Made by a program: the position numbers and the translations under genes. Positions 8,808 to 29,999 of a stretch of 32,581 nucleotides of DNA are shown here, piece by piece (position 1 is the first letter of the stretch; every line of letters begins with the position of its first letter). Location of the stretch: contig JAKAKS010000004.1 of assembly GCA_021813405.1 (NCBI GenBank), positions 1 to 32,581 of the forward strand, given 5' to 3'. Source of the DNA: Nitrospirota bacterium. Its GTDB lineage: Bacteria > Nitrospirota > Thermodesulfovibrionia > Thermodesulfovibrionales > JdFR-88. Under the pieces are notes generated by a model. It did not search any database and was not told the origin of the DNA. It was given only the letters and a program-made list of their open reading frames with translations.

Positions 8808-11800
8808 TCAAAGACGGGACGTGTCAAACCGTACGACTACGCCCGCACCTTTACCGCGCAATATTTCCAGACTGCCCTGGAGCTGTTTCCTGGCAAGTTC
8901 ATTTACCAATATGAGGCCAAGAGAGCTTGACCGTTCTATCTGAAACCCTGCCGGGAAGCCTATTCCATTATCCGCGAAGGTCAGTTCTATCTCATTTCCT
9001 TTCTTTCTCAAAGAGATGCTGATCTCCCCGCCCCTTTTGTTGGGGAAGGCATGCTTGATGGAATTCGATAGCAACTCATTTGCTATAAGGCCGCATGGTA
9101 TGGCTGCATCTAAAGAGACCGGGGCTGAATCTAGGTCCAGATTAAGCCTGACGTGCGCTGCCTTATAATCGGCGGCAACAGCCTTCACAAGCTCTTCCAG
9201 GTAGTCCTTCAGGTCCAGCCTCGAAAGTTCCTTTGTCTTGTAAAGCAGCTCATGCACAAGGGCCATAGACTGTATCCTGGCCCCGGTCTCTTTGAACATC
9301 TGCCGGACTCCCGCGTCTTTTATGGAGTTCATCTGCAGGCTTAAGAGCGCGGATATGGCGTTCATGTTGTTTTTAGTCCTGTGGTACACCTCTTTTAGCA
9401 GGACTTCTTTTTCTTTCAGGGCGTCTTTGAGAAAATCTTCCGCCTGCTTGCGCAGGGTAAAGTCTTCAATCGCAAGAAGTATCATCTGCTTTTTTTCGCC
9501 ATGCTGCACGATTCTGCGGGCATTAAGCAGCATCGTTTTCCTGCCGATTGCCGGGAAATCGTGCTCTACCTCAAAGTCACTTAAAACTTCATTCTTAGGA
9601 AGAATCCCGGAGAGGAGCTTTTTAAGTTGCGGAATATTCCACTGCCCGTTTCCCAACTCGAAGACACTCTTTTTTTCGGTTTCTTCTCTGATACCCCTGA
9701 ACATGGCGTAAAAGGCCCTGTTTGCCGTTATCACCCTGAGGCCGGCATCCAGTACCAGCAGGGGTTCGCGCACCGTATCCACAATGCTCTCCGCAAACAC
9801 GCTGGCGTCCACGGCCGATTGCTGGGCCTGTTTAGTTTCCGTTATGTCGGTAAAGGTGATCACCGTACCGTCTATTACATTTTCCACTGTGCGGTAGGGA
9901 AGGATCCTTATCAGGCGCCAATTGCCTTGTTTGGTCTGGACTTCCTTTTCCTTGTAAACAAGGGTTTTCATTACCTGCTCCACATCCCCAACCAGGTTTT
10001 CATCGGCCAGGTTGGTGGCAAACTGTTCCAGGGGCCTGCCGATATCGGAAGGGATTAGCTTCACAATGCCGGTAGCCATCGGGGTGAACCGCTTGATTCT
10101 AAGCCCGTTGTCAAGGAAGATGGTGGCTATCTCCGTCCCCGTAAGCAGGTTGTTCATATCGCTGTTGGACTGGGAAAGCTCATCCATCTTCTTTTGAAGC
10201 TCGGTATTCACGGTTACAAGCTCCTCGTTAACCGATTGCAGCTCTTCCTGCGAGGTCTGCAGCTCCTCATTCATGCTTTGCAGTTCCTCGTTAGAGGACT
10301 GGAGCTCTTCATTGGAGGATTGCAGCTCCTGGGTGGCGTTTTCAGCCTCGCGCACCACCGATTGCAGGTACTGCTTATTTGCGGCAAGCTGCTTTTCCAG
10401 TTCCCGTACGCGCCTGTCATTTTTGCCGGAAACAGCGGACTTCCCCTCCGGTTCCTGCGCGCCCGCCTGCCCGGGGACTTCCTTGAAGACTACCAGGGAC
10501 ATGCCTTGCGGCGATTCCGGCTGCTTAAGAGGGCTTACTTCGATTCTGACCGCCTCAAGCCCTCCGTTGCCCTTAAACGTAACATTTTCGCTTGCGATCG
10601 GTTTCTTCTGACGCGCGGCTTTTTCCAAAGCTGCGGCGAGCGCCGGCCTCAGTTCCCCGCGGGCCATCTTCAAGATATCAAGAGAGGGTCTTCCCCCGGG
10701 ATGCTCCAGGAATTTGGCCGTCCGCCCGTGGAAATAAAGGATGGTGTTTTTCGGGTCGACTATTACGCAGGCAGGCGTGTAGCGCTCCATCAGGATATTT
10801 TCAACAATTCCGCTGATGCCGGGCTCCGGGGTTTTTACGGCAATCCCCGTCCTCTGCTCTTCGGTAACCCCTTTTATGGCCGCGGAAGGGAACTCGACTT
10901 TCAAGGCCGATACGGTCTGCTTGCGGATGTAAATCTTCCATTTCCGGTCCAGCGCCTGAAAAAGATCCCCAAATTCCCCGATTGCCTCTGAAGGGCCCAG
11001 CAAGAGTATGCCGCCGGGATTTAAAACATAGTGAAAAAGAGGCAAAAGCCTTCTATGCGCCGCGGAATCAAGATAGATCATGAGGTTCCGGCAGCTCACC
11101 AAATCGAGCCTTGAAAAAGGAGGGTGGCGCAGGACATCGTGGGCGGCGAAAACCACCGTCCTGCGGATGTCCTTTTTTATCCGGTATGTGCCGCCTGATT
11201 TAACGAAGAAATGCGAGAGCCTTTCAGCCGTCACGTTCTTTTGCAGTGATTCGGCAAAAACGCCTTCCCGGGCCTTATCTATGGCCCGGGCGTCCACGTC
11301 GGTTGCAAATATCTGCACCTTGCAATCCACGTTCTCCTCATCCATGTATTCCCTGAGCATGATGGCTATCGAGTAAGCCTCCTCGCCGGTCGAGCAGCCA
11401 GGCACCCAAACCCTCACGGGCTGCTGTGCGGGTCTGTTTTTAAAGATAAGCGGCAAGGCCTTTTTCTTCAGGCCTTCAAAAGCGCCGGGATCACGAAAGA
11501 AGCTTGTCACCCCGATAAGGAAATGCCTGCTGAGCAGGTCAACCTCCCCGGGGTCCTGCTTGAGATAACGCATGTAAGCCGCGATATCATCCATCTGATG
11601 AAGGGCCATGCGCATTTCAATCCTTCGTCTGACAGTATTTTTCTTGTAAAAGGCAAAGTCCTGCCCTGTCTTGTTGCGGATGAGAAGAAGTATTTTATGC
11701 AGGTCCCCGGAGATTTGCTGGTCCGTGGCGCCTGGCGCCCGTTCAGCCCCGGCGATCCCATTCCCGGCGCCCTGCCTGGCCTCTATGATTGCAGAGTGTT

Positions 11801-12425
11801 TTATGTATTCAATAATTTTGCCAGGCATCTCTTCGGGAGGAAGAATGAAATCCGCCAATCCGGTGTCAATGGCGCTTTGCGGCATTCCATCATACTGCGC
11901 TGATTTCGGCTCCTGCACCATTGCCATGCCGCCATCGCTCTTGATGTCCTTGAGCCCCTGCGTCCCGTCGAATCCCGTTCCGGAGAGGACCACGCAAATG
12001 GCTTTTTGCCCCTGATCCAGCGCCAGGGAATGAAAAAAGAAATCTATGGGGTGCCTCAGGCCATGGGGCGACCGCGGTTCAAAAAGATGAAGATGTCCGC
12101 CCGTTATGCCCATGTCCTTATTAGGAGGAATTATATAAAGGTGGCCGGGCATTACCTTCACGTCATCCCCGGCTTCGGAGACCTCTATCTTCGCATATTT
12201 CTTAAGCAACTCAACCATCATGCTTTTGCGGGTGGGTTCAAGGTGCGTGACGAGGACAAAGGCCGCTCCGCAGCCAGAAGGAAGATGCGCAAAAAAGCGT
12301 TCAAGCGCATTCAGCCCCCCGCCGGAGGCGCCTATGCCTACAACGTAAGGGGTGGCGGGCAAAGAGCGTCCCTTTCTCTCTTTGGATTTTGAGACAACTT
12401 TTTTGCTTTCAGGCACGTTGTCCAC
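8808..12425 (-). CDS. CheB-CheR-PAS-histidine kinase fusion protein
   Basis: 1205-aa signalling protein from a GTG start. Residues ~25-210 are a CheB methylesterase without a receiver domain, with catalytic Ser34 (GASGG), His61 (LVTHLEP) and Asp153 (SGTGFDGT) all present. Next comes a CheR methyltransferase (~240-500) with the SAM site PGCSTGEEAYS and the NLMIYL strand. A long coiled coil of repeated SSNEELQ-type heptads (~680-780) leads to two PAS domains (~780-1000). The C-terminus is a HisKA_2-type kinase: H-box with HRTKNNM, N-box NELLSNSIKHA, G-box DNGIGFP. The architecture is known in environmental bacteria, and its substrate is usually undefined. It stands alone, with no receptor or CheA gene beside it. 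The HisKA_2 family often feeds a separate response regulator, none of which is adjacent. Confidence 0.93.
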   Translation of the reverse strand: MDNVPESKKVVSKSKERKGRSLPATPYVVGIGASGGGLNALERFFAHLPSGCGAAFVLVTHLEPTRKSMMVELLKKYAKIEVSEAGDDVKVMPGHLYIIPPNKDMGITGGHLHLFEPRSPHGLRHPIDFFFHSLALDQGQKAICVVLSGTGFDGTQGLKDIKSDGGMAMVQEPKSAQYDGMPQSAIDTGLADFILPPEEMPGKIIEYIKHSAIIEARQGAGNGIAGAERAPGATDQQISGDLHKILLLIRNKTGQDFAFYKKNTVRRRIEMRMALHQMDDIAAYMRYLKQDPGEVDLLSRHFLIGVTSFFRDPGAFEGLKKKALPLIFKNRPAQQPVRVWVPGCSTGEEAYSIAIMLREYMDEENVDCKVQIFATDVDARAIDKAREGVFAESLQKNVTAERLSHFFVKSGGTYRIKKDIRRTVVFAAHDVLRHPPFSRLDLVSCRNLMIYLDSAAHRRLLPLFHYVLNPGGILLLGPSEAIGEFGDLFQALDRKWKIYIRKQTVSALKVEFPSAAIKGVTEEQRTGIAVKTPEPGISGIVENILMERYTPACVIVDPKNTILYFHGRTAKFLEHPGGRPSLDILKMARGELRPALAAALEKAARQKKPIASENVTFKGNGGLEAVRIEVSPLKQPESPQGMSLVVFKEVPGQAGAQEPEGKSAVSGKNDRRVRELEKQLAANKQYLQSVVREAENATQELQSSNEELQSSNEELQSMNEELQTSQEELQSVNEELVTVNTELQKKMDELSQSNSDMNNLLTGTEIATIFLDNGLRIKRFTPMATGIVKLIPSDIGRPLEQFATNLADENLVGDVEQVMKTLVYKEKEVQTKQGNWRLIRILPYRTVENVIDGTVITFTDITETKQAQQSAVDASVFAESIVDTVREPLLVLDAGLRVITANRAFYAMFRGIREETEKKSVFELGNGQWNIPQLKKLLSGILPKNEVLSDFEVEHDFPAIGRKTMLLNARRIVQHGEKKQMILLAIEDFTLRKQAEDFLKDALKEKEVLLKEVYHRTKNNMNAISALLSLQMNSIKDAGVRQMFKETGARIQSMALVHELLYKTKELSRLDLKDYLEELVKAVAADYKAAHVRLNLDLDSAPVSLDAAIPCGLIANELLSNSIKHAFPNKRGGEISISLRKKGNEIELTFADNGIGFPAGFQIERSSSLGLILVNELARKQLQGSLEILRGKGAGVVVRFDTSRL

Positions 12426-19008: not shown

Positions 19009-19467
19009 TCAGCCTGCCCGCTTTAAGTTTTCCAGCAGTTCCCGCGCGGTCTTCTTAAGCACCGGATGCAGAACATCCGGTGCAATCTCGGCCAGGGGCG
19101 CAAGCACAAATTCCCTTTCGGGTATTGAGGGGTGGGGTATGGTAAAGCCGGGCGTGTTTATAACAACATCGTCATACAGAAGCAGGTCCAGGTCTATGTT
19201 GCGCGGCCCCCACTTCTCCTTGCGCACCCTGCCCATCATGTCTTCTATTTCGTGGAGCTTTGCATGCAGAACTTCGGGCGGCATGTCCGTTTCAAGCTCC
19301 GCCGCCATGTTTATGAAATCCGGCTGGCCCGTCATACCCCAGGGCCTGGTCTCATAAGCCCTGGACACGGCACGCACTTTTATCCCCATGGCGCCGATTA
19401 TGGACAGGGAGCGGCGGCAGTTGCCCTCCCTGTCGCCAAGGTTGGAGCCTATGGAGATGTAGGCCAA
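19009..19467 (-). CDS. folK: 2-amino-4-hydroxy-6-hydroxymethyldihydropteridine pyrophosphokinase
   Basis: HPPK of folate synthesis, transferring pyrophosphate from ATP to hydroxymethyl-dihydropterin. 152 aa from a TTG. It has the SIGSNLGDRE start, the ETRPWGMTGQPDFINM stretch, and the signature GPRNIDLDLLLYDD that binds the two magnesium ions and ATP. It starts 7 nt after the dapL stop, with AGGAG inside the end of dapL, so the two are cotranscribed. Confidence 0.95.
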   Translation of the reverse strand: MAYISIGSNLGDREGNCRRSLSIIGAMGIKVRAVSRAYETRPWGMTGQPDFINMAAELETDMPPEVLHAKLHEIEDMMGRVRKEKWGPRNIDLDLLLYDDVVINTPGFTIPHPSIPEREFVLAPLAEIAPDVLHPVLKKTARELLENLKRAG

Positions 19468-19474
19468 AGCCAGT

Positions 19475-20644
19475 TTACAGCGCTCCTTTTATACGTGCCA
19501 CAGCTTCCTCTATGCGTGCAACCGGCACTGTAAGGGCAAACCGGATATAGCCTTCGCCTGGGGCGCCAAACCCTACGCCAGGCGTACCAAGCACACCGGC
19601 TTTCTCCAGCAGATGCCTGGTAAAAGTTCTGGAATCGAAGCCGCGGGGGCACCTGGCCCAAAGGTAAAACGTGGCCTCCGGCCTGGCGCTGAATTCAAAC
19701 CCGATATCCTTGAGGCCGCCGTAAAGGGCGTCCCTTCTTTCCTCGTAGGTCTTGCGGATGGGGGCAAGCACGGAATCATCCGTATGGAGGGCGGCAACGC
19801 CAGCCTCCTGCACCGCCTGGAAAACCCCGGAGTCCAGGTTTGTCTTGATCTTCCCAAGCCCCGCCAGCACATGCCTGTTGCCAACGGCAAACCCTATTCT
19901 CCAGCCAGTCATATTGTAGGTTTTTGAAAGGGAATGGAATTCGATGCCTGTTTCCATACCCCCCTCGGCCTCCAGGAAACTGCCGGGCCTTTTATCACCG
20001 GAATAAATCTCCGAGTAGGCGGCATCATGGCAGACGATTATATTGTGCCTGGCTGCAAATACGGCCACGGACTTGAAAAAATCCAGGCCGGCCGTAGCGG
20101 CCGTGGGATTATTAGGATAATTCAGGAAAAGAAGCTTGGCCCGCTTAAGCACGTCCTGCGGGATGGCCGCAAAGTCCGGCCGGAACCCGTTTTTTTCTGT
20201 AAGCGGCAGCGGATAGCCTTCCGCTCCCGCAAAAAGGGCGCTTACCGGATAGACCGGGTAACCTGGCGAAGTATACAGGACAACATCGCCCTTCTCTGTA
20301 AATGCCAGCGGTATATGGCCGATGCCCTCCTTGGAGCCGATCAGCGAAAGCACTTCCGTTTCCGGGTCCAGATTTACACCGAAACGGGTTTTATACCAGT
20401 CTGCCACGGCCTGCCTGAAAGAAGGCATTCCTTCATAGGAAGGGTACCTGTGATTGGCCGGGTCCCCGGCGGCCTTCCTCAGGGCATCTATTATATGGGC
20501 AGGCGTGGGCAGGTCCGGGTCGCCAATGCTCAAATCTATAATATCGGCCCCCTTCGCCCTTGCCTCCCGCTTCAGGACATCTATTTCGGCAAAGAGATAT
20601 GGCGGCAAATCACGGATTCTGGAGGCAAGCTCGATTTTAAGCAT
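19475..20644 (-). CDS. dapL: LL-diaminopimelate aminotransferase
   Basis: Class I/II PLP aminotransferase of 389 aa. It converts tetrahydrodipicolinate to LL-diaminopimelate with glutamate, a one-step route to lysine and peptidoglycan precursors. The N-terminal region with LPPYLFAEID and LSIGDPDLPTPAHII is typical of DapL. PLP contacts appear as NYPNNPTAA and HDAAYSEIY, and the PLP lysine is in SLSKTYNMTGWR. A GGAGG lies about 12 nt upstream of the ATG, and a perfect TATAAT about 48 nt upstream. Other class I aminotransferases are the alternative, but the N-terminus favours DapL. Confidence 0.9.
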   Translation of the reverse strand: MLKIELASRIRDLPPYLFAEIDVLKREARAKGADIIDLSIGDPDLPTPAHIIDALRKAAGDPANHRYPSYEGMPSFRQAVADWYKTRFGVNLDPETEVLSLIGSKEGIGHIPLAFTEKGDVVLYTSPGYPVYPVSALFAGAEGYPLPLTEKNGFRPDFAAIPQDVLKRAKLLFLNYPNNPTAATAGLDFFKSVAVFAARHNIIVCHDAAYSEIYSGDKRPGSFLEAEGGMETGIEFHSLSKTYNMTGWRIGFAVGNRHVLAGLGKIKTNLDSGVFQAVQEAGVAALHTDDSVLAPIRKTYEERRDALYGGLKDIGFEFSARPEATFYLWARCPRGFDSRTFTRHLLEKAGVLGTPGVGFGAPGEGYIRFALTVPVARIEEAVARIKGAL

Positions 20645-20762: not shown

Positions 20763-21287
20763 TTAGAACTTATATCCCATCATTAGGTAGCCGGAGTCGA
20801 TCCCTTCGTTCACTTTAAAGAGCCCGCCGTTGGACATATGCCTGAAACGGTAGGAAACGGCCAGCCCGTTTTTAAACTCGACGCCTACGCCAAACACAAG
20901 GTCGAAGAGGAAATTGCCGCCCAGCTGGCGGCCGGCGAACTGGGAACGGCTGACCCCGTTGGCCCCGGCCCCAACGTCAAAAAACGGCGTGGCGGCGCCC
21001 ATGGGCGCCTTCATCCTTGCCACAAGCGAAGCGCCGCCATCAAACAGGGTCTGGCCGCTGGCACGGATATATTCCAGGGTGGGCTCCACCCTGATAAACA
21101 GGTTTTGCTTAAGCCTGTGCTCGCCTGCCGCAAGCACCATCGCCTGCCAGGTCCTGCTGCCGTCCATATTCCACCCTCCGGCTACGTCCGCCTCCTTTTG
21201 CCATGCGGCGGCGGCCGGAGATGCAAAAAGGGCCGCCGCCAGAGCAAGGGCTGAAACAAGTCTGAAACCGGCAATTTTAAATTTCAA
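20763..21287 (-). CDS. PagL-like outer-membrane lipid A deacylase family protein
   Basis: Eight-strand barrel family of PagL (lipid A 3-O-deacylase). 174 aa from a TTG at 21287, chosen because GGAGG precedes it and it gives a clean signal peptide (MKFKIAGFRLVSALALAAAL... cleaved after ASPAAAA). Upstream in-frame starts would overlap the cytochrome. The catalytic His-x-Ser-Asn motif is present (His150, Ser152 in FRHMSNGGL). The acid expected 12 residues after Ser is Asp164 rather than Glu, with Glu161 nearby. The C-terminus ends in GYKF. It lies 11 nt after the 13-heme cytochrome, so it belongs to that operon. It could modify lipid A or act as a small structural barrel. Confidence 0.75.
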   Translation of the reverse strand: MKFKIAGFRLVSALALAAALFASPAAAAWQKEADVAGGWNMDGSRTWQAMVLAAGEHRLKQNLFIRVEPTLEYIRASGQTLFDGGASLVARMKAPMGAATPFFDVGAGANGVSRSQFAGRQLGGNFLFDLVFGVGVEFKNGLAVSYRFRHMSNGGLFKVNEGIDSGYLMMGYKF

Positions 21288-21298
21288 ATTGCCTCCGC

Positions 21299-22354
21299 TC
21301 AGAAACTCTTTGTTGCGCTGTGGCAATTAGTGCACAGGTCAAATCTGTGCTGGGCCTTGTATCTCCACAATTTACCCCAGTCTGAAGAATGGGGGACATG
21401 GCACGACAGGCAGTTAAAAGGCTTGCCTTTCCTCTTGGGGTCCTGCGGCCCCTGCAGCGGATGGCCGGCGGCTGAAAATCCGCCGATCACGTGAGGCCCC
21501 TGCCATATTTCCGGATGGCATCCCCTGCAAAGGAAGGGCACAGGTTTCCTCAGCAGTTTATCATTCCTGTTGGCGTGCGGAACATGGCACTTAAGGCACT
21601 GCCCGGCTGCTACAGGCGGATGGACCACCTTTTTATGGAATTTCAGATCGTCTGGCATTGCAGAGTCGTCATGGCAAGTAAAGCAGAGCTGCGGTATCGG
21701 ATAATTCAGCATGCGCATATTGTTGGAAGAATGAGGGTTATGGCAGTACGTGCACATGCCCGCGGCAACCGGCGGATGGACATTCTTACCCTTGAACCTT
21801 TTTTTGTCATGGCAGCCAAAACACAGGTCCGGCGGCTCCTTCCTCAGCAATTTTTCGTTATCGCTTGAATGCGGGTAATGGCATTTCATGCACATTCCCG
21901 CCGCAACCGGCGGATGGACCGTTTTTTTGGTGAACATGCCTTGATCATGGCAGTTGAAGCACAGGTCCGGTATCTTGTAATTGAGCAGTTTATCGTTGTC
22001 GCTTACGTGCGGGTTATGGCAGAAGGTGCACATGCCCTGGGCCACGGGCGGATGCACGTCCTTCCTGTGGAACTTGTAATCATCAGGCACAGAGTCGTCG
22101 GTATGGCACTGGAAGCAAAGGTCCGGCGGCTGGGCGGAAAGCCCCAGCTTGCCCGTAAATTTATGCGGCACGGTCGAGGCGTCCACGCCCGTGTGGCATG
22201 CCGTGCAGCCCATCTGCACCGCAGGATGCACAACCTTGCCCTCCGCTTTGTCCTTATGGCATTTTACGCACTTGTCTCCGTCGGCCCAGGCCGGCCCATG
22301 CACCGCAAGGGCCGCTATCATGGCCAGGACCAAAATCAAAACGCTTTTCTTCAT
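21299..22354 (-). CDS. Exported 13-heme cytochrome c (doubled-CXXCH repeat family)
   Basis: 351 aa with an N-terminal signal peptide (about 24 residues) and 13 CXXCH motifs by direct count. The body consists of ~45-residue units, each with two CXXCH plus VHPPV and NPH histidines that can serve as distal ligands, so bis-His hemes are expected. Residues ~28-85 are almost identical to the start of the neighbouring 19-heme protein, and the last three-heme cap also matches. The module with DDSxMP and KFH occurs at heme 3 and again at heme 9, a trace of internal duplication. AGGAG lies 7 nt before the ATG. It lies 39 nt after the 19-heme gene. Periplasmic or extracellular electron transfer is likely. 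Confidence 0.93.
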   Translation of the reverse strand: MKKSVLILVLAMIAALAVHGPAWADGDKCVKCHKDKAEGKVVHPAVQMGCTACHTGVDASTVPHKFTGKLGLSAQPPDLCFQCHTDDSVPDDYKFHRKDVHPPVAQGMCTFCHNPHVSDNDKLLNYKIPDLCFNCHDQGMFTKKTVHPPVAAGMCMKCHYPHSSDNEKLLRKEPPDLCFGCHDKKRFKGKNVHPPVAAGMCTYCHNPHSSNNMRMLNYPIPQLCFTCHDDSAMPDDLKFHKKVVHPPVAAGQCLKCHVPHANRNDKLLRKPVPFLCRGCHPEIWQGPHVIGGFSAAGHPLQGPQDPKRKGKPFNCLSCHVPHSSDWGKLWRYKAQHRFDLCTNCHSATKSF

Positions 22355-22393
22355 TACAGACTCCTTTTAAAAAACGTTTTCACGCCGCCCCGG

Positions 22394-23854
22394 TTATTGC
22401 ATCTTTTCCGGATGGCAGTTTACGCATATATCGTACGGGTTCTTGGCCGGGAACCTGAATATGTACACCGAGTCGGACCCGTGCTGGTTATGGCAGCTCG
22501 TGCAGCAAAGCTCTCTGTGCGGCCGCCTGGGGTCCGGATACCCATGAGTGGGATGGCCCTTCTGGCTAAGCCCGGCTATGGCGTGGGGGCCTGCAACTTC
22601 CTGTGGATGGCACTGGTTGCAGACCTGGTTTACCTTTGGGAAAACCAGAAGCAGAGGGCTTTGAGATGTATGAGGCTTATGGCACATCAGGCAAAGCCCC
22701 GCGGCAACAGGCGGGTGCTGGACCTTGGGCAGAAACTGCACCTCCTGCGAGTGGCAGGTAAAACAGAGGTCCGGCACCGGCTTCCGGAGCAGCTTGTCAT
22801 TATCGGACTGGTGCGGAAAATGGCAGTACATGCACATCCCTATCTTCACCGGGCCATGGATCTTCCTGCCGCCCCAGAACTGCTGCCGGTCATGGCATCT
22901 GAAGCACAGATAAGGCGGAGGCACCCAAAGAAGCTTGGAATACCTGGATGAATGTGGAGAATGGCATTTAGGGCACATACCCGCCCTCACCGGAGGGTGC
23001 CCCACCGCTTTCCCGAATATAAGCGACTTGTCGTGGCAGTTAAGGCAGAGGTCCGGCGGCATCTGCACCAGCAGCTTCGGGTTGTCCGACTCGTGCGGCT
23101 TATGGCAGAAAAGACACATCCCGGCCTCGGCCGGCGGGTGCTTGTGCCTGTGGCCCATCAGCGCCTTTCCATCATGGCATCTGAAGCACAAATCCGGAGG
23201 TGTGGCCCTGAGCAGCTTTCTATGGTCCGACTGGTGCGGATAATGGCACATCAGGCACTGCCCCGCGAATACCGGAGGATGGACCGTCTTTTCCTTTACA
23301 AAATGCTTGTCATTGTGGCACATAAAGCACAGGTCCGGCGGCGGCTTCCGGAGCAATTTTTCATTATTGCTTGAGTGCGGGTTATGGCAGTAAATGCAAA
23401 GGCCGGCCATTACCGGCGGATGGATTGCGCTTTTGGCCAGGAATTCTTTTTTATCATGGCAGTTGAAACACAAATCAGGCGGCGTCTGTTTCAGCAGGTA
23501 CTTGTTTTTGCTTGTGTGCGGATCATGGCAGAAAGTGCACATGCCTTCGGCAACCGGCGGGTGGACCACAGATTGGTGGAATTTGAACCTGGCCGGCATC
23601 GCGGAGTCATCGTGGCACTGGAAGCACAGGTCCGGCGGCTGGGCGGAAAGCCCCAGGTCACCCGTGAACTTGTGCGGCACTGTGGATGCGTCCACCCCGG
23701 TATGGCAGGCCTCGCATCCCATCTGGACTGCAGGATGCACAACTTTGCCTTTGGCATGGTCTGCGTGGCATTTCAGGCAATCAGCCGACGAGACTCCTGC
23801 TAGGGAAAATACAAAAAAGAGCGCCGTGAGGACTGTGCGTATTGTCTTGCCCAT
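22394..23854 (-). CDS. Exported 19-heme cytochrome c (doubled-CXXCH repeat family)
   Basis: 486 aa from the ATG at 23854, which gives the signal peptide MGKTIRTVLTALFFVF...VSSA; upstream in-frame codons add a non-signal-like extension. Nineteen CXXCH motifs by direct count. It has a three-heme N-cap, 13 internal hemes in repeated ~45-residue double-heme units of the form DLCFxCH...VHPPVxAGxCxxCHxPH, and a three-heme C-cap containing GPHAIAGLSQKGHP. All hemes have nearby extra histidines. There is no lipobox, no TM anchor and no barrel, so it is soluble in the periplasm or secreted. An extended -10 box lies 12 nt upstream and no Shine-Dalgarno is visible. Paralog of the 13-heme gene downstream. 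Confidence 0.94.
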   Translation of the reverse strand: MGKTIRTVLTALFFVFSLAGVSSADCLKCHADHAKGKVVHPAVQMGCEACHTGVDASTVPHKFTGDLGLSAQPPDLCFQCHDDSAMPARFKFHQSVVHPPVAEGMCTFCHDPHTSKNKYLLKQTPPDLCFNCHDKKEFLAKSAIHPPVMAGLCIYCHNPHSSNNEKLLRKPPPDLCFMCHNDKHFVKEKTVHPPVFAGQCLMCHYPHQSDHRKLLRATPPDLCFRCHDGKALMGHRHKHPPAEAGMCLFCHKPHESDNPKLLVQMPPDLCLNCHDKSLIFGKAVGHPPVRAGMCPKCHSPHSSRYSKLLWVPPPYLCFRCHDRQQFWGGRKIHGPVKIGMCMYCHFPHQSDNDKLLRKPVPDLCFTCHSQEVQFLPKVQHPPVAAGLCLMCHKPHTSQSPLLLVFPKVNQVCNQCHPQEVAGPHAIAGLSQKGHPTHGYPDPRRPHRELCCTSCHNQHGSDSVYIFRFPAKNPYDICVNCHPEKMQ

Positions 23855-23936: not shown

Positions 23937-26116
<2,180 letters not shown>

Positions 26117-26191: not shown

Positions 26192-27598
26192 TTAGAACAC
26201 CACGTCCACAAGCACCTTGAATATCTTGTCCGTCTCGCTTGCCCCCTGTGCTACAGGAATAGTGCCGCCCGTCAGGTAATTGCTCTTCACATCGGCGTAG
26301 ATGAACTGCACCTTTGTGTTGTACCAGGGCAGGTAGTTCAGGCCCACAAGCCAGGTGTGCTGTGTTCTTGCGGGGTCGAAGTCGTTAGGGTCAACATGGA
26401 AATTATTCACCCAGTTGTACTGGCCCACTACGCCATACGTCCTGTTATAAAAATAATCCGCCTCAACGGCGCCGCCGTTAAAGCTCCTTTTATCGCCGGC
26501 CCCTAGTGTGCCCGGCAAATTACCCTCGAAAGTACCAAGCGGCGCCAGCCCTGTTTCCTGGCCGAAGCCGAAGATGCCCTTTGCCTCAACAAGGTGCTGG
26601 CCGGCATCGCCCAGGTCCTGCTCCAGGGAGGCGTCAATATATTGTCTGTTTACATGGGTGCTGCCTATGAAGGTCGTCACACCGGTATCAGACACGTTCT
26701 CCCGTCCGGTATATACCGCGCCGCCAAAAGTGACCGAGCCATGCGGCAGGCTCTGGTCCCAGGCAAGCCTTCCATACAGTCCAAACGGGTTGCCCGTTGC
26801 GCCCTCGGCAGTGCCAAAAGGCGTAGCCGGCAAGCTATGCATGAATGAAGCCGCAACCCCGTCGGCGTCTTCCACGTTGCCGCCCCTGGTTGCGCCTATG
26901 GCCGCATAGAGCCGGTTGTCCAGGAAATATCCGTGAATCACGCCGCCAAGGTTGTTGCCGTCCCAGAAATTGTAAGTCCAGCCCTTGTTCAGCACCCAGG
27001 GAAGCCCTTCGGTGTCCGGTGAGGCTATATCCCTGTCCCAGCCGCCGAAGCTGTTAAACGGGTCCGCGGCGGTCGGCAATCCGTAAAAAAGCACCGCTCC
27101 TATGGTGTCGCCGTTGCTGAAAGGATACGCGAAGGCCACCTTGGATACGGCCACGCTGAAGCTGCCACCCGGTATCGAGCCGCTCTCCACGCTGGTAAAC
27201 ACGCCTGCGTACTTGTAAATGCGGCTTGCAAAAAATATCTGCATGTTATCGATCTGGGTTGTGTTTACGTTGTAAGAATTATTTACCGGATTGGGATTGG
27301 GCGCAGAGCCATCCTGCTCAAGCTGGTATGGCTCAAAGATGATGCGCGCGGACACGGGAAACACGTAAAAAAGATTAAGCCTGTCGTTTTTGATGACGTT
27401 CCAGTCCGGCGACGCGTCCGTATATGCGTTTACCTTGAACTGCCTTCCGTACTGGTTTAAGTTGGGCCATACCGTATGGCAGGCCGAGCACGGCGCTTTT
27501 ATCTGCCTGGCAAAAGAAGGAACGGCCTCCGCCCTCTGCGTTACAGAAAAGACAAGAACCGGCATGAGCAAGGCAAGCAGCAGCAAAAGTTTCTTCAT
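26192..27598 (-). CDS. Cyc2-like fused monoheme cytochrome-porin
   Basis: 468 aa from the ATG at 27598, fixed by AGGAGG upstream and by the signal peptide (cleavage near Ala25). The mature N-terminus reads VPSFARQ..., one heme site C37SACH41, then TVWPNLNQYGRQFKVNAYT. This is the N-terminal pattern of Cyc2-type outer-membrane cytochromes, where a small heme plug is fused to a ~16-strand barrel. The remaining ~400 residues alternate as barrel strands and end in ...DVVF, a C-terminal Phe. Cyc2 oxidises Fe(II) at the cell surface, but related proteins occur in organisms not known to oxidise iron, so the donor is inferred. It lies 13 nt after the cupredoxin gene and is cotranscribed with it. Confidence 0.75.
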   Translation of the reverse strand: MKKLLLLLALLMPVLVFSVTQRAEAVPSFARQIKAPCSACHTVWPNLNQYGRQFKVNAYTDASPDWNVIKNDRLNLFYVFPVSARIIFEPYQLEQDGSAPNPNPVNNSYNVNTTQIDNMQIFFASRIYKYAGVFTSVESGSIPGGSFSVAVSKVAFAYPFSNGDTIGAVLFYGLPTAADPFNSFGGWDRDIASPDTEGLPWVLNKGWTYNFWDGNNLGGVIHGYFLDNRLYAAIGATRGGNVEDADGVAASFMHSLPATPFGTAEGATGNPFGLYGRLAWDQSLPHGSVTFGGAVYTGRENVSDTGVTTFIGSTHVNRQYIDASLEQDLGDAGQHLVEAKGIFGFGQETGLAPLGTFEGNLPGTLGAGDKRSFNGGAVEADYFYNRTYGVVGQYNWVNNFHVDPNDFDPARTQHTWLVGLNYLPWYNTKVQFIYADVKSNYLTGGTIPVAQGASETDKIFKVLVDVVF

Positions 27599-27611
27599 GC
27601 AATTCCCTCCT

Positions 27612-28346
27612 TTAGAAAGTTTTTCTGGCTGCGGTTTTCCTGTAAGGTATCTGGATTGTGGTGGCCCTACCCCCTGACACATTTACGTTTTTAACGTCCT
27701 CGGTCCCAAGGTCCGCATGCCAGGCCTCCACAGTATACGTGCCGGGCGGCACATTCCTTATCGCAAAATGCCCGTTAGAGTCCGTGACGGCCGCATACGG
27801 ATTATCGAATACGTAAAGATAACCGCGCATCCAGGGGTGGACATCGCAGGTTATCTTCATTATGCCCGTTTGGGTAAGCACTCTTGTCACCTGCGTTCCT
27901 TTCCCCTGCAGGCTAACATTGTAATAAGTAGTGTGATGCATGTATGTGTGGATATTGTGGAATATCGGGTCGGCATTTCTGAATATGAGAGGGCTGCCCA
28001 CAAAGCCTATTCCAGTGTGCGGCACGAATGCGCATTTGCTGTTGTCCACAACATAAGGCTGCCTTGGCGCCGGGGCCCCAGCCGGGATGTTTTTCAGGAA
28101 AACGACCACGTTCTGTATTTTTTTATTTCTGATCAGGTATTTTTGCGCCGGCATGGTCCTGGGGCAGTAATTCATATTCATCGTCGAGTGCACAACCGGG
28201 TCCCTGGGCGGCACGCCGTCAAACACAACCGTCCCTTCAACCGTTCCGCCATTGCTTACCATTCTCACTGTGTATGCGTGCGCCGGGACAGGCAACCGGA
28301 ATGCAAATATCAAAAGCAGCAATACCAAAAGGCGTTTCCTGAACAT
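27612..28346 (-). CDS. Exported amicyanin-like cupredoxin with carboxypeptidase-regulatory-like tail
   Basis: 244 aa from the ATG at 28346 (GGGAGG 5 nt upstream; the GTG 3 nt earlier is too close). Signal peptide ends near Ala24. The type-1 copper site is visible: His130 (DPIFHNIH), Cys167, His170 and Met173 in CDVHPWM, the tight Cys-x2-His-x2-Met loop of amicyanin. Residues ~180-235 (VTDSNGHFAIRNVPPGTYTVEAWH) form the carboxypeptidase-regulatory-like strand pattern. Such proteins recur in environmental bacteria without assigned function. Placed 13 nt before the Cyc2-like gene, it is a good candidate periplasmic partner, as rusticyanin is for Cyc2 in Acidithiobacillus. Confidence 0.82.
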   Translation of the reverse strand: MFRKRLLVLLLLIFAFRLPVPAHAYTVRMVSNGGTVEGTVVFDGVPPRDPVVHSTMNMNYCPRTMPAQKYLIRNKKIQNVVVFLKNIPAGAPAPRQPYVVDNSKCAFVPHTGIGFVGSPLIFRNADPIFHNIHTYMHHTTYYNVSLQGKGTQVTRVLTQTGIMKITCDVHPWMRGYLYVFDNPYAAVTDSNGHFAIRNVPPGTYTVEAWHADLGTEDVKNVNVSGGRATTIQIPYRKTAARKTF

Positions 28347-28496: not shown

Positions 28497-28532
28497 TTTA
28501 AGGAAATTTCAATGGTGAACTGGAGGGTAAAC

Positions 28533-29999
28533 ATGAGAAAGTGCGCCGGAGCGTTCCTGGTGTTAATGTTGTTTGCAACCGTAGGCCTTTGCACCGTGGC
28601 ATCTGCCAACTCCGGGTACTTCCACGTGAACCGGGAATTTTACCCGTATTACCCTTCACTTGTCAGATGGAACAAATCCCATGCGCCTTTTACCGCTCCG
28701 GAGGTCTGCAAGGACTGCCACCCCAAGCAATATGAAGAATGGACGGGGTCACTGCATGCGCTTGCCTTCCAGGACCCGCTTTACCAGGGCGAACTGAATA
28801 AGACTTACAAGTTTGGAGGGCAGCAGGTTGCCCGCCAATGCAACGGGTGCCATTCCCCCGCAGGCATGGTCACGGGCGAGATAAAGGGGCCGGGCATAGC
28901 GGACCTGAGTTCGCTGGCCCTTGCCGGCGTTTCCTGCGACATATGCCATTCCATAAGCGGCACCACCCACCTTGAGACCCCAAGCCACGAGCCGGAAAAC
29001 GGCTCCTTCATACTATCGCCAGGCGTGGACTCCGAAAACGGGATATCACTGATAAAACGCGGGCCTTGGAAGCCGGGCAAGGACTGCGGCGGAGGCTTTC
29101 ATGAGTGCACAGTGTCGCCTCTGCACCTCAGTGCGGACCTCTGCGCGGGCTGCCACCAGGTGTACCATTATTCGGACCACTTCCCGCTGGAGACCACGTA
29201 TCTTGAATGGAAGCACGGCGCATATGCCCAGAAGGGGATACTTTGCCAGGACTGCCACATGGTGGACCTGAAAACTTTTATAAAGAGCGCAGACGACTAC
29301 CGCAAACCGCTCCGCAGCGAATACCGCCATTATTTTAACGGGGCCAACTATCTAATCTATTACCTGGCGGAGCAGGCCGCGCTAAAGGCCGGCAATGTGA
29401 AAAAAGCCGCCATCCTCAAAGACAAATACCAAATGGCCATAAAACGGCTCCAGCTTGCCGCGGACCTCTCCATCTCGCCCGTTTACAGGGATGGAAAGCT
29501 GGAGGAAATCAAGGTTGAGGTCAAAAATATCCGGGCTGGGCACAACCTGCCCACTTCGCTTACCAACGTCCGCCAGATGTGGCTGGAGCTTACCGCCCTG
29601 GATGGCACAGGCAAAGTGCTGTTTACCAGCGGGACCCTGGACGCCAGGGGCCATCTGCCCAAAAACACAAGGATATTTGATTCAGAAGGAAGGGGGGACC
29701 AGTTCCATTTCTTCCTGAACAGATGGGTTGTTACCTCCTTTACTAAAAACGAGACCATTCCGCCCAAGGGGTATAAGGACGTTTATTACGGGATAAACGT
29801 GCCCGCGGGGGTAAAACAGGTTACCATCAAGGCCAGGCTGCGTTACAGGCAGGCAGACCCCGTTGTGGCTGAGGACGTCCTGAGTGCCGTCCCGGCCAGC
29901 ATAAACCTGGAACAGACCTACGGGATTACCAATACCCCGGCCATGCCAGTGGTGGACATGGTTGTAAAACAGGCGGTATTCGGCTCCACGCGGCCATAA
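28533..29999 (+). CDS. Exported pentaheme cytochrome c, c554-like N-domain with beta-sandwich tail
   Basis: 488 aa. The ATG at 28533 is preferred over the one at 28512 because GGAGG lies 7 nt before it and it opens a typical signal peptide (cleaved near ASA). Five CXXCH motifs (CKDCH, CNGCH, CDICH, CAGCH, CQDCH). The first is followed by PKQYEEWTGSLHA, the pattern of the cytochrome c554/c-prime family, with distal histidines in the YxxW...HA segment. Residues ~310-480 are heme-free and beta-rich, with AGHNLPTSLTNVRQMWLEL. It is divergent from the cupredoxin/cyc2-like genes and shares their control region. An electron-transfer or oxidoreductase role is inferred. Confidence 0.88.
   Translation: MRKCAGAFLVLMLFATVGLCTVASANSGYFHVNREFYPYYPSLVRWNKSHAPFTAPEVCKDCHPKQYEEWTGSLHALAFQDPLYQGELNKTYKFGGQQVARQCNGCHSPAGMVTGEIKGPGIADLSSLALAGVSCDICHSISGTTHLETPSHEPENGSFILSPGVDSENGISLIKRGPWKPGKDCGGGFHECTVSPLHLSADLCAGCHQVYHYSDHFPLETTYLEWKHGAYAQKGILCQDCHMVDLKTFIKSADDYRKPLRSEYRHYFNGANYLIYYLAEQAALKAGNVKKAAILKDKYQMAIKRLQLAADLSISPVYRDGKLEEIKVEVKNIRAGHNLPTSLTNVRQMWLELTALDGTGKVLFTSGTLDARGHLPKNTRIFDSEGRGDQFHFFLNRWVVTSFTKNETIPPKGYKDVYYGINVPAGVKQVTIKARLRYRQADPVVAEDVLSAVPASINLEQTYGITNTPAMPVVDMVVKQAVFGSTRP

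What the first reader, a model, noticed from the sequence alone, without database searches (positions are those of the whole stretch)
21299..23854. Cap-repeat-cap pair of heme proteins built to two lengths (19 and 13 hemes)
The two adjacent cytochromes share a nearly identical three-heme N-cap (including CHTGVDASTVPHKFTG and LGLSAQPPDLCFQCH) and a similar three-heme C-cap (GPH...GHP then two CXXCH). They differ only in the number of internal double-heme units, 13 internal hemes against 7, a difference of three whole units. The DDSAMP/KFH module appears twice in the shorter one. This looks like a modular heme wire that grows or shrinks by unit duplication, perhaps two segments of one conduit or two nanowire subunits. 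The heme counts are direct; the wire idea is inference.
Basis: partly seen in the sequence, partly recalled or inferred. Interest (0 to 1): 0.75.

Follow-up and report, generated by a model that had tools for sequence, protein, structure and literature searches.

The report
Length-variable heme wires with fixed ends
Two neighbouring genes of a Nitrospirota bacterium make long heme-packed proteins with the same kind of ends and a middle built from two-heme blocks; relatives carry versions with anywhere from 7 to 45 hemes, always an odd number, so they look like electron wires, probably within the cell envelope, whose length evolution changes one block at a time.

Summary
Gene A (13 CXXCH) and gene B (19 CXXCH) have homologous three-heme ends and differ by three two-heme units. 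In Nitrospirota relatives I found 64 same-cap proteins with 7 to 45 hemes, all odd. Close cap relatives differ by whole units (19 vs 33; 9, 11 and 15), and one relative holds a 138-bp unit duplicated at 97.8% DNA identity. The same chromosomal locus carries long+short pairs of 19+13, 33+9, 45+17 and 23+11 hemes. A sister family built of the same kind of unit stays at 26 and 16 hemes.

Function is inferred. An NHL beta-propeller gene lies beside 27 of 42 loci. In one relative both cytochromes carry an N-terminal SPOR (peptidoglycan-binding) domain, and the locus has no large porin. I favour a monomeric periplasmic heme wire over a secreted polymer or an MtrA-type conduit. AlphaFold models were unusable (pLDDT 37 and 32), so heme spacing is untested. 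Long repeat-built heme wires with variable heme number are already known (PCC3, GSU1996), so this is a new variant of a known kind.

The parts
22394..23854 (-). Gene B, long member: 19-heme doubled-CXXCH cytochrome with a Sec-type signal peptide (MGKTIRTVLTALFFVFSLAGVSSA) and heme 1 directly after it; the ORF can be opened to 23932 from a TTG
   Evidence: signal peptide read by eye; caps group with the 33-heme protein of G003 (100/95)
21299..22354 (-). Gene A, short member: 13-heme doubled-CXXCH cytochrome, Sec-type signal peptide, Shine-Dalgarno AGGAG before the ATG, 39 bp after gene B
   Evidence: caps nearest to the 9-heme protein of G003 and the 7-heme protein of G008
23612..23779 (-). N-cap of B, hemes 1-3
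22103..22270 (-). N-cap of A, hemes 1-3, 89% identical in protein to that of B
22622..23611 (-). B internal array, 13 hemes between the caps, repeat spacing 141 bp
21530..22102 (-). A internal array, 7 hemes between the caps, units of 138 bp (156 bp where the DDS..KFH linker is 6 residues longer)
22397..22621 (-). C-cap of B, last 3 hemes (GPH...GHP...DP.R, then two CXXCH)
21302..21529 (-). C-cap of A, last 3 hemes, 44% identical to that of B
23937..24998 (-). NHL-repeat beta-propeller, probable lipoprotein (LATSC; likely start near 24932), first gene of the apparent operon
   Evidence: PF01436 93.7 bits; homolog within 2.5 kb on the same strand in 27 of 42 cap loci
20763..21326 (-). PagL-like outer-membrane protein (PF09411), conserved downstream at the same locus in G003 and weakly in G005; role with the cytochromes unknown
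19009..20644 (-). aminotransferase and HPPK-like genes that mark the conserved locus (syntenic anchor, not part of the system)
   Evidence: names given by eye from the translations

Best explanation
A and B are monomeric, bis-histidine, peptide-minimised heme wires of the doubled-CXXCH (PF09699) type that most likely work in the periplasm. They would carry electrons between the inner-membrane side and the outer-membrane side, with the NHL lipoprotein as a cell-envelope partner. The three-heme caps are the fixed contact ends. The middle is a stack of self-contained two-heme units, each bringing its own two distal histidines. Unequal recombination between units therefore lengthens or shortens the wire in steps of two hemes, and the total stays odd. 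Shown: the caps, the unit structure, odd parity, the length series, the conserved locus, the NHL linkage, and the SPOR fusion in one relative. Inferred: linear heme stacking, periplasmic location in this organism, direction of flow, partners, and whether A and B act in series or in parallel.
For: Modularity: 64 of 64 same-cap proteins have odd heme counts, 7 to 45; B (19h) and the G003 33h protein are sisters by caps (100/95); a ladder of 9, 11 and 15 hemes with unit-to-unit matches of 78-84%; a 138-bp unit duplication at 97.8% DNA identity in L009; a 16-copy 132-bp array in the 45h gene. Self-contained units: distal His at -8 before the next motif after odd hemes and CXXCHxPH after even hemes; every family member has at least as many distal His as hemes. 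Wire-like: homology to MtrA, PDB 6r2q (E 7.5e-19 and 1e-16), and about 24 residues per heme, below the roughly 33 that PMC5566968 quotes for MtrA homologs and treats as a wire hallmark. Location: SPOR domain (PF05036, 26.2 and 37.6 bits, cut-off 21) fused to the N-terminus of both cytochromes in G005, which has the same NHL-long-short arrangement; no lipobox on A or B (by eye). NHL neighbour in 27 of 42 loci, against about five NHL-bearing ORFs in the whole own genome. The own genome has a separate MtrA-MtrB pair.
Against: The SPOR fusion is seen in one genome only, so the location does not transfer with certainty. Both structure models are unusable (pLDDT 37 and 32), so no heme spacing was measured. 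At roughly 10 A per heme (MtrA, 10 hemes, about 100 A, PMC5566968) B would be about 190 A, near the 200 A periplasm quoted in PMC7096707, but the 33- and 45-heme relatives would be far longer. No inner-membrane quinol oxidoreductase is apparent beside the pair. Fifteen of 42 loci have no NHL gene within 2.5 kb. No expression or biochemical data exist.
Confidence: 0.55

Rival explanations
1. Electron-storage protein: a periplasmic capacitor like Geobacter GSU1996, in which heme number sets charge capacity and not reach.
For: Very low residue-to-heme ratio and wide tolerance of heme number, 7 to 45, fit capacity tuning; PMC10138318 assigns that role to the monomeric periplasmic 'nanowires of hemes'. 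The SPOR fusion fits a fixed periplasmic store.
Against: Strong conservation of both end caps while the middle varies suggests defined entry and exit ends; conserved pairing of a long and a short gene with an NHL gene suggests a pathway.
Confidence: 0.2
2. Secreted, polymerising nanowire subunits, as OmcS, OmcE or OmcZ, with A and B as two subunit types.
For: Heme 1 and the last heme sit at the very ends of the mature chains; tandem homologous cytochromes in one operon resemble omcS/omcT (PMC12977616).
Against: No sequence match to any solved nanowire cytochrome; SPOR fusion on both members in G005; subunit length varies enormously among relatives (7-45 hemes), unlike the hexaheme OmcS and octaheme OmcZ (PMC10138318).
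Confidence: 0.13
3. MtrA-type cytochromes that thread an outer-membrane porin.
For: Closest solved sequence is MtrA; B scores 281 bits against the DmsE/MtrA-family model, cut-off 192.
Against: That score is summed over six repeat stretches; no large porin was recognised in the operon or at the syntenic loci examined; the genome has its own decaheme MtrA next to MtrB elsewhere; 13 and 19 hemes instead of 10.
Confidence: 0.07
4. The length series is an artefact of mis-assembled repeats in MAGs.
For: Most genomes appear to be MAGs, and the freshest repeats (L009, L041) could be mis-sized.
Against: In the window no two same-length units of A exceed 70.3% DNA identity and those of B are below 67%, so reads cannot be confused; a second same-genus MAG agrees exactly; parity is 64 of 64 odd; the sister 26/16-heme family in the same class is constant.
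Confidence: 0.03

Closest known systems
SEEP-SRB1-type operon: six-bladed beta-propeller, 16-heme and 26-heme cytochromes, peptidyl-prolyl isomerase (PMC5539420)
   Same: Beta-propeller gene beside a tandem pair of large multiheme cytochromes with signal peptides; the likely 16-heme counterpart in Nitrospirota has a recognisably similar C-cap.
   Different: Heme numbers stay at 26 and 16 in the loci fetched from this class; different N-caps; no isomerase recognised at the window locus; the window genome has no 26-heme match at E 1e-60. That the Nitrospirota 26/16 pair is the same system is inferred from heme counts and pairing only.
PCC3 porin-cytochrome complexes (PMC5566968, PMC10734462)
   Same: Very long, low residue-to-heme, repeat-built cytochromes with variable heme number (periplasmic 21, 24, 27; extracellular 10-35 and more), proposed wires.
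   Different: PCC3 needs a porin and an inner-membrane protein in the same cluster, not found here; listed PCC3 heme counts include even numbers.
GSU1996 / GSU0592 / GSU2210 periplasmic 'nanowires of hemes' (PMC10138318)
   Same: Monomeric periplasmic linear heme chains with many hemes; GSU1996 repeats a small multiheme module, edge-to-edge 3-5 A.
   Different: Module in GSU1996 is a three-heme domain with one His-Met heme; here a two-heme unit with two distal His and distinct caps.
MtrA / DmsE-family decaheme cytochromes (TIGR03508, PDB 6r2q)
   Same: Homologous repeat units and ligand pattern; heme wire.
   Different: Ten hemes inside MtrB; here 7-45 hemes, no adjacent MtrB; a true MtrA-MtrB pair sits elsewhere in the same genome.
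Uet pathway with undecaheme UetJ and NHL proteins UetHI (PMC10734462)
   Same: Doubled-CXXCH cytochrome with 11-12 hemes linked to NHL-repeat genes.

Membership tests
Doubled CXXCH / Paired_CXXCH_1 (PF09699, TIGR01905) | Matches to the approx. 41-residue two-heme domain above cut-off | tested here: met
   A 6 and B 9 stretches, 243.6 and 357.4 bits against 20.6; TIGR01905 likewise
MtrA / DmsE-family decaheme cytochrome | Ten hemes | tested here: not met
   13 and 19
MtrA / DmsE-family decaheme cytochrome | Gene next to an MtrB/PioB porin | tested here: not met
   Only MtrB of the genome is on contig C17 beside a separate 10-heme gene
[quoted passage not shown]
   Genes directly around the pair are NHL, PagL-like, aminotransferase, HPPK-like, tgt-like
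SEEP-SRB1-type 26/16-heme operon | 26-heme and 16-heme cytochromes with beta-propeller and isomerase | tested here: not met
   Beta-propeller present, but heme numbers and N-caps differ; no 26-heme gene at E 1e-60 in the own genome; isomerase not recognised
GSU1996-type nanowire of hemes | Repeating three-heme domains | tested here: not met
   Unit is two hemes of about 46 residues; all copy-number differences are even
OmcS/OmcE/OmcZ polymeric nanowires | Sequence relation to a solved nanowire subunit | tested here: not met
   No such chain among PDB matches
OmcS/OmcE/OmcZ polymeric nanowires | Polymerisation into filaments | not testable with these tools
   needs cryo-EM or biochemistry
Linear heme wire (functional class) | Successive hemes within about 14 A | tested here: inconclusive
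   AlphaFold2 models pLDDT 37.1 and 32.0
Periplasmic protein | Targeting or retention signal for the periplasm | tested here: inconclusive
   SPOR fusion on both counterparts in G005, none on A/B themselves; signal peptides read by eye
UetJ | Homology of caps to UetJ | not tested
   sequence not in hand

The most novel reading that the evidence does not exclude
A phylum-wide family of periplasm-spanning single-molecule heme wires in which end caps fix the partners and the number of two-heme units is the evolvable variable that sets reach. The conserved gene pair would then form one route of two lengths, long and short, through or along the cell wall, with the peptidoglycan as scaffold.
Probability: 0.3. 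Interest if true: 0.75.

Novelty: new variant of a known kind. Interest (0 to 1): 0.55.

Why it matters
It gives a natural length series (7 to 45 hemes in steps of two, same ends) of one heme-wire family, including genes at the same chromosomal place that differ mainly in unit number. That makes it possible to measure directly how electron transfer depends on wire length, whether heme number tracks envelope width, and how heme chains evolve. The constant 26/16-heme sister family is a built-in control.

Tried and rejected
Recent gene conversion of the N-cap: A and B N-caps are closer to each other (89%) than to any relative compared (at most 80%), but 19 of 50 identical residues differ synonymously, so an old conversion or shared constraint both remain possible; not decided. 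Structure prediction of A and B with alignments of 6 and 5 sequences, the only ones permitted, gave unusable models, so no fold search was run. Mutual exclusion with the 26/16-heme pair: striking within the window's own family, but many genomes elsewhere in the class have both, so it was dropped. The single-CXXCH barrel-like gene at 26192-27682 as the outer-membrane partner: absent from the relatives that carry the pair, apart from the same genus, rejected. The tetraheme gene that precedes the long gene in G003, G018, G005 and G030 was not found in the own genome, so it is not an obligatory part. Plasmid carriage: one distant hit only. The apparent even-heme exceptions (L114, L059) turned out to carry a CX3CH motif. 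L045 was left out because its N-terminus is masked.

Full report
WHAT IS THERE. Two adjacent minus-strand genes encode multiheme c-type cytochromes: B (22394-23854) with 19 CXXCH and A (21299-22354) with 13. Read by eye, both have Sec-type signal peptides without a lipobox. The first heme motif comes within one to four residues of the likely cleavage site, and the last is followed by 5-6 residues. Pfam sees Paired_CXXCH_1 repeats in 6 and 9 stretches. The preceding gene, 23937-24998 (-), is an NHL beta-propeller with a lipobox-like LATSC. The following gene is PagL-like. The genome is a Nitrospirota MAG or very near one: a 99% identical copy of B lies in the MAG contig JAJYLE010000095.1.

THE OBSERVATION. 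The counts and the cap-repeat-cap layout are right. The N-caps are 89% identical in protein but only 81% in DNA, with 19 synonymous differences among 50 identical residues; the C-caps are 44% identical. The internal array is a 138-141 bp direct repeat.

THE KEY TEST. They do. Searching relatives and the class with B and with the N-cap alignment (N-cap match in 92 of 230 genomes of the class, and also in another class of the phylum), I collected 64 proteins with the caps. Their heme counts are 7(3), 9(5), 11(12), 13(14), 15(14), 17(2), 19(4), 21(6), 23, 33, 35 and 45: every one is odd. Forty-nine met strict spacing rules for both caps; 15 were added with looser C-cap spacing. The one apparent even count among them, L114, has a CX3CH motif in the missing place. 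These sequences are related, so 64 is not the number of independent events.

HOW LENGTH CHANGES. In a tree of the caps alone B is sister to the 33-heme protein of G003 (100/95); 15-, 11- and 9-heme proteins form one group (100/97); 21- and 13-heme proteins another (100/97); the 45-heme protein groups with two 21-heme ones (96/93). Unit by unit the 9-heme protein's two units match units 2 and 3 of the 11-heme protein (78 and 84%), and the 11-heme units match units 2, 3/4 and 5 of the 15-heme protein (78-84%), units 3 and 4 being a duplication. L009 carries a 138-bp unit duplicated at 97.8% DNA identity. The 45-heme gene holds 16 copies of a 132-bp unit. In every protein where it could be tested, the most similar pair of same-length units is offset by an even number of hemes.

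WHY PARITY. Internal segments alternate: after odd hemes a histidine sits 8 residues before the next motif, and after even hemes the motif reads CXXCHxPH. Each two-heme unit thus brings two distal histidines. Total distal histidines never fall below the number of hemes, consistent with bis-His ligation throughout (inference).

SAME PLACE, DIFFERENT LENGTH. Synteny: window NHL-19-13-PagL-aminotransferase-HPPK; G003 NHL-4-33-9-PagL-aminotransferase-HPPK; G018 NHL-4-45-17-(one ORF)-aminotransferase-HPPK; G092 NHL-23-11-aminotransferase-HPPK; G005 NHL-4-21-9-PagL; G030 4-21-9 (the last two without the anchor genes in the stretch read). An NHL gene lies within 2.5 kb on the same strand in 27 of 42 cap loci, while the own genome has only about five NHL-bearing ORFs. 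By contrast, the 26/16-heme pair made of the same kind of unit is constant at 26 and 16 in the loci fetched from the same class.

WHERE IT WORKS. In G005 (same GTDB family) both members of the pair carry an N-terminal SPOR domain, 26.2 and 37.6 bits against a cut-off of 21. SPOR domains bind peptidoglycan in the periplasm (established knowledge of that family). The fusion was found only in G005. No large porin was recognised at the locus, and the genome's MtrA-MtrB pair is elsewhere. I therefore favour a periplasmic wire. Taking about 100 A for ten hemes (MtrA, PMC5566968) and a 200 A periplasm (PMC7096707), 19-23 hemes would just about span it; this is arithmetic, not evidence, and the 33- and 45-heme cases do not fit unless bent or running sideways.

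WHAT FAILED. Both AlphaFold runs gave pLDDT 37 and 32, so heme spacing is untested and no fold search was made.

COMPARISON. Long repeat-built heme wires with variable heme number are known from PCC3 (PMC5566968, PMC10734462), and monomeric periplasmic heme wires from GSU1996 (PMC10138318). A beta-propeller beside two large cytochromes is known from SEEP-SRB1 (PMC5539420). New here, as far as the open papers searched show: one cap family with strictly odd heme number from 7 to 45, syntenic length variants, a conserved long/short pair, and a SPOR fusion on both members in one genome. The library searched is open-access only, so earlier description elsewhere cannot be excluded.

Noticed in passing
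G000 contig C17, 148733-152019 (L064 9734-13020): A separate decaheme MtrA-like gene directly followed by an MtrB/PioB porin (PF11854, 180 bits), with no extracellular cytochrome gene beside it: an MtoAB/PioAB-like two-gene conduit in a Nitrospirota genome.
   Followed up: partly
window 26192-27682 (-): Barrel-like outer-membrane protein with one CXXCH right after the signal peptide (PSFARQIKAPCSACHTVWPNLNQYGRQFKVNAY), resembling Cyc2 fused cytochrome-porins from memory; conserved at 64-71% in several genomes of the same family, not linked to the cytochrome pair.
   Followed up: partly
window 28512-29999 (+): Five-heme protein with weak similarity to the ExtKL (seleno)protein model (42.7 bits, cut-off 250) and a cytochrome c554 domain.
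   Followed up: no
window 8808-12425 (-): 1205-aa CheB-CheR-coiled coil-PAS-histidine kinase fusion.
   Followed up: no
L009 9986-11017: A 138-bp two-heme unit duplicated in tandem with 97.8% DNA identity: a snapshot of unit duplication (or an assembly error worth checking with long reads).
   Followed up: yes
L042 (G005) and G005:C7:85965-86288: SPOR domains fused to both cytochromes of the pair, and a third ORF (302 aa) elsewhere in the same genome that matches the SPOR-bearing N-terminus.
   Followed up: partly
L034, L035, L022 and others: 26-heme plus 16-heme pair in many relatives, constant in heme number; the end of the 16-heme protein resembles the C-cap of the family studied here.
   Followed up: partly
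G093:C10:26482 (L104, 35 hemes) and G141:C22:2376 (L113, 892-aa ORF): Further very long members of the cap family, whose gene neighbourhood was not examined.
   Followed up: no
L047, L049-L053, L056, L061, L066: In other families of the order the cap genes sit among membrane glycosyltransferase-like proteins, TPR proteins, an unknown lipoprotein (cluster c3) and several NHL genes, hinting at an envelope or exopolysaccharide context.
   Followed up: no
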